Position numbers and translations under genes: made by a program. A DNA stretch of 64,000 bases. Origin: Gemmata massiliana. GTDB taxonomy: Bacteria > Planctomycetota > Planctomycetia > Gemmatales > Gemmataceae. The notes under the pieces were generated by a model. It was not told the DNA's origin, did not search any database, and worked only from the letters and a program-made list of their open reading frames with translations. Location of the stretch: contig NZ_LR593886.1 in the NCBI RefSeq assembly GCF_901538265.1, positions 7,027,738-7,091,737 of the forward strand. The letters are read 5' to 3'. Shown piece after piece: positions 9,105-16,506 of the stretch (position 1 is the first letter of the stretch; each line of letters starts with the position of its first letter).

Positions 9105-9986
9105 TCAAACCGTCAGTCGGATGCCCGCCGACATGGTGGCCGAAAGGACGACCCCGTTGATGAAGTTACCCTTGACCCCGGACGGCTTGACGGAGCGGAT
9201 CTGTTCGACGAACACGGTGATGTTCTCGACCAGCTTCTGTTCATCGAAGCTCATCTTGCCGACGCCCGCATGGATCTGTCCGGTCTTGTCCGACCGGTAC
9301 TCGACCTTACCCGCCTTGAACTCGCGGACCACGCTCGCGAGGTCACCGGTAGCCGGAACCACGGTACCAGCCTTTGGGGTCGGCATCAGACCGCGCGGCC
9401 CGAGCACCTTACCGAGGCGCGACACCTGACCCATCATGTCCTGCGACGCGAGGGCCACGTCGAAGTCGAGGAAGTTCTGCTTCTGCACCTTCTCGACGAG
9501 GTCCGCCCCACCGACCACGTCCGCCCCGGCCGCCTTCGCCTTCTCGATGTTGTCGCCCTGACAGAACACGGCGACGCGGACGCTCTTCCCGATCCCGTGG
9601 GGCAGCGGGATGGCCCCGCGCACCATCTGGTCCGATTGCGTCGGGTCGATCCCGAGGTTGATGTGGATCTCGACCGTTTCGTCGAACTTCGCGCGCTTGA
9701 GTTTCTTGAGCTCGGCGACCGCCTGCTTCACGCTGACCGGGCCGGCATCGCGGAGTTTCTTCTCCACGTTTTTGAGGTGGTTGCGGAGTTTCTTCCCGCG
9801 GCGCGGCGGGACGCCGGGCTTCTTCTTGACCTGCGGGGTTTCGAGCGCGTCGGCCTTCTTGACTTGCGGGGCCTCGGGGGCGTCGGGCTTCTTGTCGCCC
9901 CCGGTGGGAGCCGCGACAGCGGCCTCCGTCGGCGCTGGGGCAACCACGGGATCGCCCGCCGGTGCGGGTTCTTTGTCGTTTGCCAT
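9105..9986 (-). CDS. rplA: 50S ribosomal protein L1 with N-terminal extension
   Basis: Ribosomal protein L1, which binds 23S rRNA at the E-site stalk and can repress its own operon. The family is typically about 230 residues; this protein is 293 because of an N-terminal Ala/Pro/Lys-rich extension of about 70 residues containing a short internal repeat ([13 protein letters not shown]-like). The L1 body includes [15 protein letters not shown] near the middle and the C-terminal [12 protein letters not shown]. The frame is open 30 bases further to 10016, but the ATG at 9986 is chosen because GGAG and AGAGG lie just upstream and it starts MANDKEP. It is downstream of rplK. Confidence 0.95.
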
Positions 9987-10171
9987 AACTCCAAAACCTC
10001 TCGTATCGGGGTTCATCGCGAATCGCGACTACGACCCCTTCCGCGGCGCATGGGCGCCGCGGTAAGTGAGAAGATAACGATTACAACACCAAACAAGTGT
10101 TGGCAACGGCGACACGCCGTTTTTCTCTTGACAGCGACCTGCGTGATCCGAAACGCAATCGGGCGGGAGGA

Positions 10172-10732: not shown

Positions 10733-11665
10733 CTACACCTTGGCAACTTGCCAGTATTCGAGTTCCACCGGGAGCGGCCGGCCCCAGAACGTGACAACCA
10801 CCGTGATCTTCGGCGCGTCGGTCGGGTCTTTCGGCTCGCTGATCGCGGTGACTTCGCCCTCGGAGTTCGCGAACGAGCCCTCGCGGATGCGCACGCGGTC
10901 GCCCTTCTCGAACTCGATCTTGATCTTCTTGCCCTTGTTGTCCACCCCGGCCTGTTTCTCGCCGGTGAGCATCTGCTGGACTTCTTGGTCCGACATCGGC
11001 TCCGGGGTCGGCGCCTCGTTGGGCTTGTTGCGCAGGTTCAGGAAGTCCCCGACCCCGCTCGTTTCGCGGAACAGGTACAGGATACGGTCGTTGAACTCCA
11101 GTTCCGCGAACAGGTACCCCTGGAACTTCTTGCGCTTGCGGGTGACCTTCCGCTCCACCGTCACCGTGTCGCCGGTCTTCTTGTCCTTAACCTTGACCGC
11201 CTTCTTCTCGATCACCTCTTCGTAGGGGATCATGATCTGGCCGAAGTACTCTTCCAGCCCTTCGATCGCGACTTTACGAAGGATGGCGGCCTTGATCGTG
11301 TCCTCGCGCCCGCTCTGGACCTTGATCGCGTACCACTTTTTCTTGCTTTCCGGCACCGGCTCGGCCGCGGGTTCGTCGTCATCGTCCGACGCGGGCACCG
11401 GCCCAGGCTCCTCGTCTTCCTCCTCGGACTCGGACCCACGAGCCGCCCGCGGCTTCTTGGTCGGTTGAGACTCTTCGGCCATTTCCGGAGCCGCTTCAGC
11501 TTCGGCGACACTTTCCGCCAGTTGATCGCCCGGCTCGATCAACTCCTGCGCCTCGCTTTCGGCGGGCGCGGGGGCAGAAACAGCGTCGTTCGATTGCGCG
11601 TCAACGACCGGGGTTGCGGGTTCCGGTTCGTTAGTCGCGGGGACGTCGGTGGTGTCTTCAGTCAT
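10733..11665 (-). CDS. nusG: Transcription termination/antitermination factor NusG, extended
   Basis: NusG couples RNA polymerase to elongation, Rho termination and the ribosome. Usual length is about 180 residues; here it is 310. Residues 1-110 are a strongly acidic, low-complexity extension rich in Glu, Asp, Ala and Pro, with no recognisable domain. The NGN domain starts at about residue 111 (WYAIKVQSGREDTIKAAIL), and a KOW motif follows near residues 255-280 (FEKGDRVRIREGSF). There is also an insert of about 40 residues in the NGN region (KKAVKVKDKKTGDTVTVERK). It lies directly after secE, as expected. Confidence 0.95.
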   Translation of the reverse strand: MTEDTTDVPATNEPEPATPVVDAQSNDAVSAPAPAESEAQELIEPGDQLAESVAEAEAAPEMAEESQPTKKPRAARGSESEEEDEEPGPVPASDDDDEPAAEPVPESKKKWYAIKVQSGREDTIKAAILRKVAIEGLEEYFGQIMIPYEEVIEKKAVKVKDKKTGDTVTVERKVTRKRKKFQGYLFAELEFNDRILYLFRETSGVGDFLNLRNKPNEAPTPEPMSDQEVQQMLTGEKQAGVDNKGKKIKIEFEKGDRVRIREGSFANSEGEVTAISEPKDPTDAPKITVVVTFWGRPLPVELEYWQVAKV

Positions 11666-11707: not shown

Positions 11708-12685
11708 TTACCACTTCTGTTCTTGTTGGACCTGCGCGCCCTTGTCCGCACTGGTCGGACGGGCCGGGAGCACCCCGACCGTGTTGCGGCTCAGCAGCCA
11801 GCCCCAGAACAGGTCAACTGCGAGCAGGAACAGCGTCATCAGGAGTGTGGTGATGAGCACCACGACGGTGTCCTGGGCCAGCCGCTTACGGGTGGACCAC
11901 GACACCTTGTTCATTTCCGCTTCGGTCGCGATGAGGAACTCGGCGAAGTCCGGCACGTTCACCGACCGGAACCCGATCCACAGCGTCACCGCGATGATGA
12001 GCACGAGTACCACGACCTTCGCGCCGATGCTCAGCAGGAAGCCGTTCATCAGCGGGATCGGCTGGATCCCGAACGGCATCGCGAGCAGCATCTGCGTCGG
12101 GACCAGCCCGTTGATGTACAGCGACCACGCACCCGACCCGCCGACGAGCAGGATACCGAGAATGGTGAGGCGCCGGACCTTCACGCCGAGCGACCGCTTG
12201 TACTGGTGAGAGGAGAACCACCCCTGCTCTTCCAGGGCGACCATCCACCGTTTGCCGGTCGGTCCGGCAAAGAACCGCAGCGCGAGGTACGCGAGCCCAA
12301 CAACAACCAGACCGCCGATCGCCATCCCCGCCGGCCCCTCGATGTTCATCGCGAATGCACGGGCCAGGAAGAAAATCGTGATGGCCGCGGAGATCATCAG
12401 GAAGATGCCGCCGTGTACGCCCCTCGGCGCGTCGCCCGCGATCTTCCCGCCGAACCACACCAGCGTCACCAGCACGGCGCACTCGGCGATGAACCAGAAC
12501 AAGTAGTCCGCCGGCCGGTTGGCCAGGCTCGGCGTCACGTACTGAGCCCACGTCACCGGGATCAGGTAGAACACGATCGCGAGCGCCGCGCACACGTAGA
12601 TCGCACCCAAAAGGCTCGCGATCGGCAGGCTCAGCGTTTGGCCCGGCGTACTGGGCACGGAACTGGGTTCAACAGCGGTCGCCAT
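11708..12685 (-). CDS. secE: Preprotein translocase subunit SecE, large multi-pass form
   Basis: SecE is the essential small subunit of the SecYEG channel. Here only the last 80 or so residues resemble SecE: an amphipathic helix (EAEMNKVSWSTRKRLAQDT) followed by the conserved membrane helix. The roughly 240 residues before it contain about six further hydrophobic segments, making a seven-pass protein of 325 residues against 60-130 in most bacteria. The frame is open from a GTG at 12724, but the ATG at 12685 is preferred for its strong purine-rich ribosome site (GGAGAGGACGGAGC). Position between tRNA-Trp and nusG supports the call. Confidence 0.9.
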   Translation of the reverse strand: MATAVEPSSVPSTPGQTLSLPIASLLGAIYVCAALAIVFYLIPVTWAQYVTPSLANRPADYLFWFIAECAVLVTLVWFGGKIAGDAPRGVHGGIFLMISAAITIFFLARAFAMNIEGPAGMAIGGLVVVGLAYLALRFFAGPTGKRWMVALEEQGWFSSHQYKRSLGVKVRRLTILGILLVGGSGAWSLYINGLVPTQMLLAMPFGIQPIPLMNGFLLSIGAKVVVLVLIIAVTLWIGFRSVNVPDFAEFLIATEAEMNKVSWSTRKRLAQDTVVVLITTLLMTLFLLAVDLFWGWLLSRNTVGVLPARPTSADKGAQVQQEQKW

Positions 12686-12949
12686 GCTCCGTCCTCTCCA
12701 TCCCGTCTTGGGTACGTCCCTCACGTGCGTGTGCGTGTCACAATCGCAACGGGAACGGGCGCGTCTCGTTCGTATTTCGCCTTGGAACCACTTGGAACTA
12801 AATGTGAGCCGAACCGGTCCACATGAGCCAACCGGCCGCTGAACCGGGTGTTTTTCCCTGTTCGGCGGCCGGTCGCGTATCGACTACGTTTGCGTTTCGG
12901 GTACCGAGATTCGGCACCGGGCACCGAACCCCATCGACACCCGGGACAG

Positions 12950-13021
12950 CACGAGCGGAGGGATTTGAACCCCCAACCGACGGTTTTGGAAACCGTTGCT
13001 CTACCGTTGAGCTACGCTCGT
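12950..13021 (-). tRNA. trnW: tRNA-Trp (anticodon CCA)
   Basis: Seven-base acceptor arms 13021-13015 and 12957-12951 pair fully; T8, A9 and a GCTC D-stem follow. The anticodon loop is TTCCAAA with a 5-bp stem ACGGT/ACCGT, giving CCA. The T-arm carries the GGTTCAAATCC consensus. The discriminator base is G, and the CCA end is not encoded. Located between tuf and secE, its usual place. Confidence 0.97.
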
Positions 13022-15093: not shown

Positions 15094-15165
15094 AGCTCGC
15101 GGAGGGAGTTGAACCCACGACCAGCGGTTTACAAAACCGCTGCTCTACCACTGAGCTACGCGAGC
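15094..15165 (-). tRNA. tRNA-Thr (anticodon TGT), first gene of the tRNA-tuf cluster
   Basis: Acceptor arms GCTCGCG (15165-15159) and CGCGAGC (15101-15095) pair perfectly. The anticodon stem GCGGT/ACCGC closes TTTGTAA, giving anticodon UGU. T-arm GGTTCAACTCC. It is the equivalent of E. coli thrU and the 5'-most member of the cluster. Its 5' half and upstream flank are duplicated in decayed form at 47034-47136, and a recombinase remnant starts 155 bases away, suggesting it was used as an integration site. Confidence 0.97.
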
Positions 15166-15319: not shown

Positions 15320-16506
15320 GTGGTCGTGTCTAAGACCGATTCTATAGCGCCCGGGTTCGCGAACAAGACTCAGAAACCACAGACGCCATACCCCGAATTC
15401 CCACTCTTTCCTCACGTCACCAACCGCTGGGCCAAGAAGATCCGAGGGAAGCTCTGTTACTTCGGCCCCTGGAACGATCCCGACGGAGCCCTCAAGAAGT
15501 ACGAGGAGCAAAAAGACACCCTGCACTCCGGACGCAAGCCACGCGAGGTGTCAGCAGGTGTCGCGATCAAGAATCTGTGTAACGCCTACCTGAATTACCA
15601 GAAGGCCAAGCTCGGCCGCGGAGACCTGTCGCCACATACCTGGAAGAACTACCGCGAGACCGCCGAGCTCATCGTCACCAAGTTCGGCAAGAGCCGCCTC
15701 GTCTCTAGAATCTGCGCCCCGATAACTTTACCGAGCTCCGCACGGTGATGTCCCAAAAGTGGGACCGGTCCGCGTCCGCAACTACATCCAGCAGCCCCGG
15801 AGTGTGTTCAAGTACGCTCTCGATTCCGAGCTGATCACCGCCTCGATCCGCTTCGGCCCGGGATTCGAGCGCCCCTCCAAAAAGGCGATCCGCTTGGACC
15901 GCGCGAAGAAGGGGCCACAGATGTTCGAGGCCGCCGAGATCCGCGCGCTGGTGAACGCGACAACCGTCCAGGGCAAAAGCGGCCCGAAAACGGTTCGGGC
16001 CGGAACCGCGCTCCGGGCCATGATCCTGCTCGGGGTGAACTGTGGGTTCGGGAACGCAGATTGTGGCACCCTGCCCCACTCCGCGCTCGACCTCGAGGGC
16101 GGGTGGGTCAACTACCATCGGCCCAAGACTGGGATCACGCGCCGGTGCCCGCTCTGGCCCGAAACCGTTGGCGCACTCCAGACTGCACTCGCCGAGCGGC
16201 CGGAACCGAGCGATCCGGCCGACGCGCACCTCGTGTTCACCACTCGGCTCGGCGGGAGTTGGCACAAGGACACCAGCGACACGCCCATCTCGAACGAGAC
16301 GCGGAAGCTCCTCAGCGCGCTGGGGATCAAGGGGAGCCGGAACTTCTACGCACTACGCCACACGTTCGAGACGATCGGGGGCGAGGCCAAGGACCAGGTC
16401 GCGGTAGATCACTTTATGGGGCGCGCGCGACGACGTGGCCGGTGTGTACCGCGAGCGCATCAGTGACGAGCGCCTCAAGGCCGTCACCGACTTCGTGCGG
16501 AAGTAG
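15320..16506 (+). pseudogene. Tyrosine recombinase/integrase, frameshifted
   Basis: A phage-type integrase broken into at least four reading-frame segments. Frame 1 (from 15320) carries an N-terminal region and a core-binding SAM-like segment (SPHTWKNYRETAELIVTKFG). A shift near 15708 leads to LRPDNFTELRTVMSQKW, a second near 15760 to RNYIQQPRSVFKYALDSE and the catalytic domain, and a third near 16425 to AGVYRERISDERLKAVTDFV with the presumed nucleophile tyrosine. The box II motif FYALRHTFETIG retains the arginine and both histidine/threonine context positions; the first catalytic arginine region is atypical (GVNCGFGNADCGTLP). It reads away from tRNA-Thr, the usual layout for an integrative element. 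Not functional as sequenced. Confidence 0.85.

What the first reader, a model, noticed from the sequence alone, without database searches (positions are those of the whole stretch)
11708..12685. SecE with about six extra membrane helices
Only the last 80 residues look like SecE. The preceding six hydrophobic segments are not found in SecE of model bacteria and must pack around SecY or have a separate role.
Basis: partly seen in the sequence, partly recalled or inferred. Interest (0 to 1): 0.6.

Follow-up and report, generated by a model that had tools for sequence, protein, structure and literature searches.

The report
Seven-helix SecE in Gemmatales bacteria
In one order of planctomycete bacteria the normally small SecE part of the protein-export channel carries an extra, conserved bundle of four membrane helices with no relative found so far, so these bacteria appear to run an enlarged version of a channel that is otherwise very constant.

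Summary
Window 11708-12685(-) is one 325-codon gene, the only SecE in a 10.1 Mb single-contig genome, with six hydrophobic segments before the SecE core helix. One correction: segments 5-6 are the accessory hairpin that E. coli and other planctomycete SecE also have; only segments 1-4 (residues ~20-140) are extra. They join just before a planctomycete SecE N-terminal motif (like YKxxQGxxxR), so the gene is a 4-TM domain ahead of an ordinary 3-TM SecE. In Gemmataceae 84 of 86 SecE frames are at least 320 aa and the other two look cut by contig ends; the sister family has them too; the N-domain profile hits none of 213 other genomes of the class. The domain was never found as a separate gene, has no credible Pfam or PDB relative, is predicted confidently (pLDDT 92), and is under purifying selection with no conserved charged residue in the membrane. 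SecG, YajC, SecDF and YidC are present, so it replaces none of them. SecY also gained an N-terminal TM hairpin in the Gemmata clade (about 21 core helices instead of 15). Best reading: a built-in accessory scaffold beside the SecY lateral gate. Anatomy firm; function inferred.

The parts
11708..12685 (-). secE, 325 codons plus stop; fused 7-TM SecE
   Evidence: only SecE match in the genome
12692..12699 (-). Shine-Dalgarno-like GGAGAGGA, 6 nt upstream of the ATG
   Evidence: sequence printed, read by eye
12218..12685 (-). Gemmatales-specific N-terminal 4-TM domain plus short cytosolic helix, residues 1-156
   Evidence: alignments A2, A3; AF2 alone pLDDT 91.9, pTM 0.78; found only in Gemmatales SecE
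12527..12628 (-). TM1, residues 20-53 (S24, G27, A28, P43, W46 in at least 80% of 43 rows)
12437..12514 (-). TM2, residues 58-83
12344..12418 (-). TM3, residues 90-114; invariant G89 and G93 at its start
12266..12334 (-). TM4, residues 118-140 (G120 in 41 of 43 rows)
12173..12265 (-). linker predicted cytosolic, residues 141-171: EEQGWF motif, then the planctomycete SecE N-terminal motif (here YKRSLGVKVRR); the fusion junction lies at about residues 157-162
   Evidence: mean 5.2 K+R, present in all 43 rows
11957..12184 (-). TM5 (168-191), periplasmic loop and TM6 (222-243) = accessory SecE hairpin shared with 3-TM SecE
11789..11956 (-). SecE core, residues 244-299: amphipathic helix (EFLIATEAEMNKVSW) and core TM7
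   Evidence: PF00584 249-299; most conserved block in 43 rows
11711..11788 (-). predicted periplasmic C-tail, residues 300-325, ending in Trp325 (TGG in 43 of 43 rows)
12949..13021 (-). tRNA-Trp upstream of secE; conserved context
   Evidence: upstream of secE in 46 of 47 related loci, the 47th (L075) holds only 32 bases upstream
10733..11665 (-). nusG, next gene downstream

Best explanation
This is the genuine, sole SecE of the housekeeping translocon. In the ancestor of the order Gemmatales a coding stretch for four transmembrane helices became fused in frame ahead of an ordinary planctomycete 3-TM SecE (the anatomy and distribution are shown; the single origin is the simplest reading, no tree was built). 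Adding an even number of helices keeps the N-terminus in the cytosol and the SecE core in its normal orientation (inferred, partly supported by loop charges). The conserved amphipathic helix and TM7 then clamp SecY as in other bacteria (established for SecE, inferred here). TM5-6 lie where the E. coli accessory hairpin lies, beside the C-terminal half of SecY near the lateral gate (inferred from the published E. coli structure). The four extra helices form a compact, lipid-embedded scaffold attached to that hairpin by a positively charged cytosolic linker. The most likely job is that of a built-in accessory subunit: it steadies the channel and shapes the lipid and protein surroundings of the lateral gate where nascent membrane helices leave, and may hold a partner there. 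Being fused, it is present once per channel. A catalytic or ion-conducting role is unlikely. SecY in the Gemmata clade has its own added N-terminal helix hairpin, enlarging the same complex.
For: Only SecE match in the genome, in canonical context, with an intact core. Order-wide: 84 of 86 SecE-bearing Gemmataceae genomes have open frames of 320 aa or more; the two short ones sit at contig ends (G464; G435, which by its coordinates appears to be L078, an edge frame). Sister family: 6 of 7 genomes have a SecE match, all 6 with frames of 321-434 aa. N-domain hits only in SecE frames, apart from three weak chance matches. Junction at the ancestral N-terminal motif. AF2 confident for the N-domain alone and in the whole protein. 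dN/dS 0.2-0.58 in residues 1-150. Conserved residues are packing types: S24, G27, A28, P43, G89, G93, G120. In helices 1-4 only E68, R109 and R137 are columns polar or charged in over half the rows, at 56-70%. The usual partners are present. Published E. coli structure: the accessory SecE hairpin reaches SecY TM8 and contacts the lateral gate (PMC6776908, passages). SecY hairpin in a nested set of genera.
Against: No complex structure, interaction data or phenotype. The N-domain is the least conserved membrane part: mean commonest-residue share 0.46, against 0.53 for TM5-6 and 0.79 for the core. Without SecY the AF2 model is weaker in the core (blocks 261-270 and 271-280: pLDDT 64 and 75), and no domain-placement error was available, so the relative position of the domains is unknown. 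The positive-inside pattern is clear for loops TM2/TM3 and TM4/TM5 but weak for the N-terminus (K+R 1.3), and the supposedly periplasmic TM5/TM6 loop and C-tail carry 3.4 and 4.2 K+R on average. Two sister-family genomes with long SecE (G501, G518) and two Gemmataceae (G444, G465) are missed by the N-domain profile, so homology of their N-termini is not shown. The lateral-gate location is transferred from E. coli. Smaller additions to SecE occur elsewhere in the phylum, which fits neutral accretion as well.
Confidence: 0.5

Rival explanations
1. Neutral accretion: the extra helices were added by chance fusion, are tolerated because they add an even number of helices at a free N-terminus, and are now kept only because the protein must still fold and reach the membrane. 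They do no specific work.
For: Helices were also added upstream of the same kind of motif in other planctomycete lineages (L143 and L144, two genomes of family f71; L152, one genome: about two helices each, read by eye). Low sequence conservation and no conserved polar residue in the bundle. E. coli's own accessory helices are called non-essential in the title of a reference of PMC6776908.
Against: No short complete copy was seen among 84 Gemmataceae frames (36 genera) and 6 sister-family frames. Confidently predicted fold, invariant G89/G93, dN/dS < 1.
Confidence: 0.28
2. The 4-TM domain has a separate function (small enzyme, channel or receptor) that is only tethered to the translocon.
For: It forms a self-contained, confidently predicted unit.
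Against: No strongly conserved charged or polar residue inside helices 1-4; no credible relative in Pfam or PDB; not found as a free gene.
Confidence: 0.1
3. The bundle substitutes for a missing translocon component (SecG, YajC, SecDF or YidC).
For: Size and helix number would allow it.
Against: Each has a match over its family cut-off in the same genome: SecG, YidC, YajC and a SecDF fusion; SecY too.
Confidence: 0.02
4. Annotation artefact: translation really starts near the SecE part, or two genes are read as one.
For: An ATG at codon 148 lies just before the ancestral SecE start, and 22 of 43 rows have Met there.
Against: That Met is missing in 21 of 43 rows. All 43 rows are single open frames. 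The Shine-Dalgarno-like site is at the first ATG; none at good spacing was seen before codon 148 (by eye). dN/dS < 1 in the N-domain. MATAV-like N-terminus conserved.
Confidence: 0.02

Closest known systems
E. coli-type 3-TM SecE (accessory N-terminal helix pair)
   Same: C-terminal amphipathic helix plus core TM; preceding helices in the same order; NCBIfam 3-TM SecE models align from residue ~219-231.
   Different: Four more helices before them and a planctomycete linker; total seven.
Planctomycete 3-TM SecE (Pirellulales, Isosphaerales and others; ~130-230 aa with the starts chosen)
   Same: YKxxQGxxxR-like N-terminal motif; homologous over residues ~154-306.
   Different: They begin at or shortly before that motif; the Gemmatales protein has ~160 residues and four helices ahead of it.
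Other planctomycete SecE variants: about two added N-terminal helices (L143, L144, L152) and periplasmic inserts between the hairpin helices (L141, L146, L147, L150)
   Same: SecE enlarged by membrane or periplasmic modules.
   Different: Smaller or in another place; not shown to be homologous to the Gemmatales bundle.
Separate accessory membrane proteins at translocons (YidC, SecDF-YajC; TRAP, TRAM and multipass factors at Sec61, recalled)
   Same: Proposed role: extra helices next to the channel helping membrane-protein exit.
   Different: Those are separate genes; no significant sequence or fold match was found. A functional analogy only.

Membership tests
SecE/Sec61-gamma (PF00584) | Match to the family profile over amphipathic helix plus core TM above cut-off | tested here: met
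   49.5 bits against cut-off 22.7, residues 249-299; TIGR00964 46.5 against 27.55
SecE/Sec61-gamma (PF00584) | Single copy beside nusG/rplK/rplA | tested here: met
   One match in a 10.1 Mb genome; secE-nusG-rplK-rplA order in the window (L11 and L1 named from sequence)
SecE/Sec61-gamma (PF00584) | Binds SecY | not testable with these tools
   Complex prediction not available; SecY present once
E. coli-type 3-TM SecE | Total of three TM helices | tested here: not met
   Seven helices
E. coli-type 3-TM SecE | Accessory hairpin before the core | tested here: met
   TM5-6 by position; profile match to 3-TM planctomycete SecE and to NCBIfam 3-TM models from about residue 222, i.e. TM6 onward
YidC/Oxa1, SecDF, YajC, SecG (as source of the N-domain) | Sequence or fold similarity of the 4-TM domain | tested here: inconclusive
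   None in Pfam or PDB sequence searches; Foldseek best E 1.2; absence from the VIA list is not exclusion

The most novel reading that the evidence does not exclude
The Gemmatales have evolved an enlarged protein-conducting channel, with a 7-TM SecE order-wide and a 12-TM SecY in the Gemmata clade (about 21 core helices instead of 15). The new helices form a dedicated membrane-protein-exit chamber at the lateral gate, built into the core subunits rather than recruited as separate factors, and linked to the extensive internal membranes of these cells.
Probability: 0.25. Interest if true: 0.8.

Novelty: new variant of a known kind. Interest (0 to 1): 0.55.

Why it matters
SecE is among the smallest and most constant parts of the universal protein-export channel. 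A whole bacterial order in which its only copy has more than doubled its membrane part with a domain unrelated to anything found, and in which SecY grew too in one clade, gives a natural experiment on what helices around the lateral gate can do. It occurs in bacteria known for heavily invaginated membranes (abstract of PMC8567305 as listed), so the link between channel design and membrane load becomes testable.

Tried and rejected
Separate-gene origin: the N-domain profile A2 found 72 of 297 genomes of the class, all in the own order (68 of 77 Gemmataceae, 4 of 7 of the sister family, 0 of 213 others), and 2 of 392 in a phylum sample. The one hit outside Gemmatales (G206, 1.7e-5) lies in an ORF that I read as CdsA-like; two weak second hits in G416 and G438 (7e-4, 8e-4) lie in ORFs that I read as TssM/IcmF-like and HlyD/EmrA-like. 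These names are read from the sequences by eye; no family search was run on them. Rejected as relatives. Of the 9 Gemmataceae without an N-domain hit, 6 have no SecE hit either, 1 (G464) is cut by a contig end, and 2 (G444, G465) have long SecE frames (431 and 427 aa) that the profile misses. Of the 3 sister-family genomes without a hit, G501 and G518 have long SecE frames (321 and 333 aa) and G590 has no SecE hit.

Duplication of SecE's own helices: N-domain against 3-TM SecE hhalign 28% probability, first half against second half 6%, SecY hairpin against N-domain 0.7%. Rejected as unsupported; E-values of single pairwise runs are not meaningful.

Fold relatives: Foldseek against PDB with the whole protein (best E 1.5) and the N-domain alone (best 1.2), and against viral models (best 1.2), gave nothing with E below 1. 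VIA-align best Z was 6.5 (67 residues, rmsd 4.6) and 7.0 (99 residues, rmsd 5.2, ABC-exporter helices), within the range the tool calls common for helical bundles. Weak PDB sequence matches outside SecE (adiponectin receptor E 0.025, mechanosensitive channel 0.17) fell to 0.17 or vanished with the N-domain alone. Pfam gave 17 families for the 22 N-domains, each in one member only, best PF15461 at 5.7e-4 and MFS_1 at 9.3e-4, none for the window protein; treated as hydrophobic noise.

Replacement of a missing Sec component: rejected. The SecD_SecF profile gave 18 matches; 2 lie in one 1205-aa frame (SecDF fusion), 16 in other frames of 1069-1304 aa that I take for RND transporters (not tested).

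C-terminal Trp as a DNA signal: rejected. TGG in 43 of 43 rows, followed by TAA 26, TAG 9, TGA 8, with no conserved base in the next 30 (best 23 of 43). It is not universal: absent in G458, in G464 and G465, and in 6 of 6 sister-family proteins.

In print: searches listed no paper on an extended SecE; no held paper contains both 'SecE' and 'Planctomycetota'. Only the best 4 to 20 papers of each search were seen, and the library lacks most subscription journals, so this is not proof of absence.

Not done: search for multi-TM SecE outside Planctomycetota; SecY-SecE complex model; a gene or genome tree. One search listed only part of its 379 SecE matches, and from these I fetched mostly the longest frames, so additions in other families are lower bounds.

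Full report
What is there. The minus-strand frame 12685-11708 codes for 325 residues. Pfam SecE covers residues 249-299 (4.2e-13) and TIGR00964 covers 248-299. The gene sits in the usual order tuf, tRNA-Trp, secE, nusG, rplK, rplA (nusG, the others named from sequence). tRNA-Trp also stands upstream of secE in 46 of 47 related loci; the remaining locus holds only 32 bases upstream. The genome has a single SecE match. A Shine-Dalgarno-like GGAGAGGA precedes the first ATG, and the MATAV-like start is conserved.

Seven helices, four of them new. Hydropathy and AlphaFold2 (mean pLDDT 85.2, pTM 0.72) agree on seven transmembrane helices. [quoted passage not shown] coli, has an accessory pair of N-terminal helices (PMC6776908, passages). 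Residues ~154-306 align with 3-TM SecE of other planctomycetes (hhalign 100%), so TM5-6 are this accessory pair. TM1-4 are the addition. The join is sharp: many other planctomycete SecE proteins begin at or shortly before a motif like YKxxQGxxxR, here YKRSLGVKVRR from residue 162. A loose motif scan scored 61 records of other groups with no helix before it (L128 and L154 are the same gene). Seven further records of other groups scored one or two: in L143, L144 and L152 reading the sequence supports added helices, while in L007, L141, L149 and L150 I judge that the scan misplaced the motif. Another 22 records (4 of them Gemmatales) could not be scored.

Distribution. Of 95 Gemmataceae genomes 86 have a SecE match; 84 of these have a stop-to-stop open frame of at least 320 aa, and the other two lie at contig ends (G464; G435 by coordinates appears to be L078, an edge frame). 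TM segments were counted only in part of them: 47 named relatives (32 with seven, 13 with six, one with eight, one with four at a fixed threshold) and a further set. The sister family in the same order has a long SecE in 6 of 7 genomes, the seventh giving no SecE match; the N-domain profile confirms 4 of these. The profile hits 72 of 297 genomes of the class, all in this order, and in a sample of 392 genomes of the phylum the own genome plus one match that I judge to be chance. A single origin at the base of Gemmatales is the simplest reading; no tree was built.

The N-domain itself. Alone it is predicted with mean pLDDT 91.9 and pTM 0.78 as four membrane helices plus a short helix. It has no credible relative in Pfam, PDB sequences, PDB folds or viral models; these absences are limited to those libraries. 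Against eight homologues dN/dS in residues 1-150 is 0.2 to 0.58 (dN 0.03-0.47, dS 0.15-1.32). Positions conserved in at least 80% of 43 rows within residues 20-140 are S24, G27, A28, P43, W46, L75, G89, G93, F95 and G120, a pattern of helix packing. Polar or charged columns inside helices 1-4 reach at most 70%, which speaks against catalysis or ion transport.

Topology. Mean K+R per loop over 43 rows: N-terminus 1.3, TM1/2 0.8, TM2/3 2.3, TM3/4 0.65, TM4/5 5.2, TM5/6 3.4, TM6/7 3.9, C-tail 4.2. The first five loops fit N-in with loops 2/3 and 4/5 in the cytosol, so that SecE keeps its usual orientation; the TM5/6 loop and C-tail do not fit well, so the rule is only partly obeyed.

Partners, and an unexpected second change. 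SecG, SecY, YidC, YajC and SecDF each have a match in the genome. SecY carries a conserved N-terminal hairpin of two hydrophobic segments (MNWR-like start) before its normal start. I examined SecY of 29 of the 38 Gemmataceae genomes: the hairpin is in 13 of 13 of the own genus, 2 of 2 of genus g2 and 1 of 1 of genus g287, and absent in the other 13; it is absent in the 2 of 4 sister-family genomes examined. With ten usual SecY helices (not recounted here) plus two, SecE 7 and SecG 2, the core has about 21 helices against 15 in E. coli (10 + 3 + 2; SecY 10 and the SecE accessory pair, SecG two). Other SecE enlargements exist in the phylum: about two added helices in L143/L144 and L152, and periplasmic inserts in L141, L146, L147 and L150, the last PDZ-like but below Pfam's cut-off.

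How it probably works. In the E. coli structure the accessory SecE hairpin is tilted, its periplasmic loop reaches SecY TM8 and the helix joining TM7-8, and simulations suggest that it modulates the lateral gate (PMC6776908, passages). A bundle tied to that hairpin by a short basic linker would lie in the membrane beside the gate. I therefore favour a scaffold or chaperone-like accessory role at the exit for nascent helices, with constant 1:1 stoichiometry. This step is inference. Neutral accretion is the main rival and is not excluded: the bundle is less conserved than the rest, and smaller additions arose elsewhere.

The conserved last residue. The C-terminal tail is variable but ends in Trp in 43 of 43 aligned proteins, encoded TGG before three different stop codons with no conserved DNA after them. 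It is missing in G458, G464, G465 and the six sister-family proteins. It may be a short binding motif on the outer side of the membrane; untested.

Novelty. SecE membership is clear; the 4-TM domain makes it a new variant. No paper listed by my searches describes it. A proteome paper on Tuwongella immobilis, compared with E. coli, places Sec translocon proteins among the inner-membrane proteins of the Triton fraction (passages); the word SecE does not occur in it. On a check against the calls I corrected the internal Met position, the helix-block confidences, the insert sizes and the description; none of these moves the odds.

Noticed in passing
L125 (own genome SecY), L175, L178, L202-L213, L215: SecY has a conserved extra N-terminal two-segment hairpin in the genera g1, g2 and g287 but not in 13 other Gemmataceae genomes examined.
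   Followed up: partly
window 11711-11713 (codon 325): Last residue Trp is invariant in 43 of 43 aligned SecE proteins behind a variable tail; not a DNA signal by stop-codon and downstream comparison.
   Followed up: partly
L141, L146, L147, L150 (other Planctomycetota): SecE with about 105-265 residues between the two accessory helices; the insert in L150 matches PDZ models weakly (4.9e-5, below Pfam cut-off).
   Followed up: partly
L071, L072-L076, L081, L086: Some Gemmataceae SecE have a ~100-residue insert in the loop between TM5 and TM6 (424-431 aa proteins); no Pfam match for the insert in the two scanned alone (L071, L072).
   Followed up: partly
L143, L144, L152: About two extra N-terminal helices before the YKxxQG-like motif in SecE of two other planctomycete families, apparently independent additions.
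   Followed up: partly
window 10733-11665 (-): NusG is 310 aa with a ~108-residue acidic, proline- and alanine-rich N-terminal extension before the NusG domain.
   Followed up: no
window 9105-10016 (-): The frame of what looks like ribosomal protein L1 opens with a long Pro/Ala/Lys-rich N-terminal extension (303 aa).
   Followed up: no
window 15320-16466 (+): Beside the tRNA cluster (tRNA-Thr 15094-15165) two consecutive frames look like a tyrosine recombinase split or decayed; read by eye only.
   Followed up: no
L035, L053, L072: Public records titled Singulisphaera sp., Bacteroidales bacterium and Candidatus Kuenenia stuttgartiensis carry Gemmatales-type SecE; the MAG labels look wrong.
   Followed up: no
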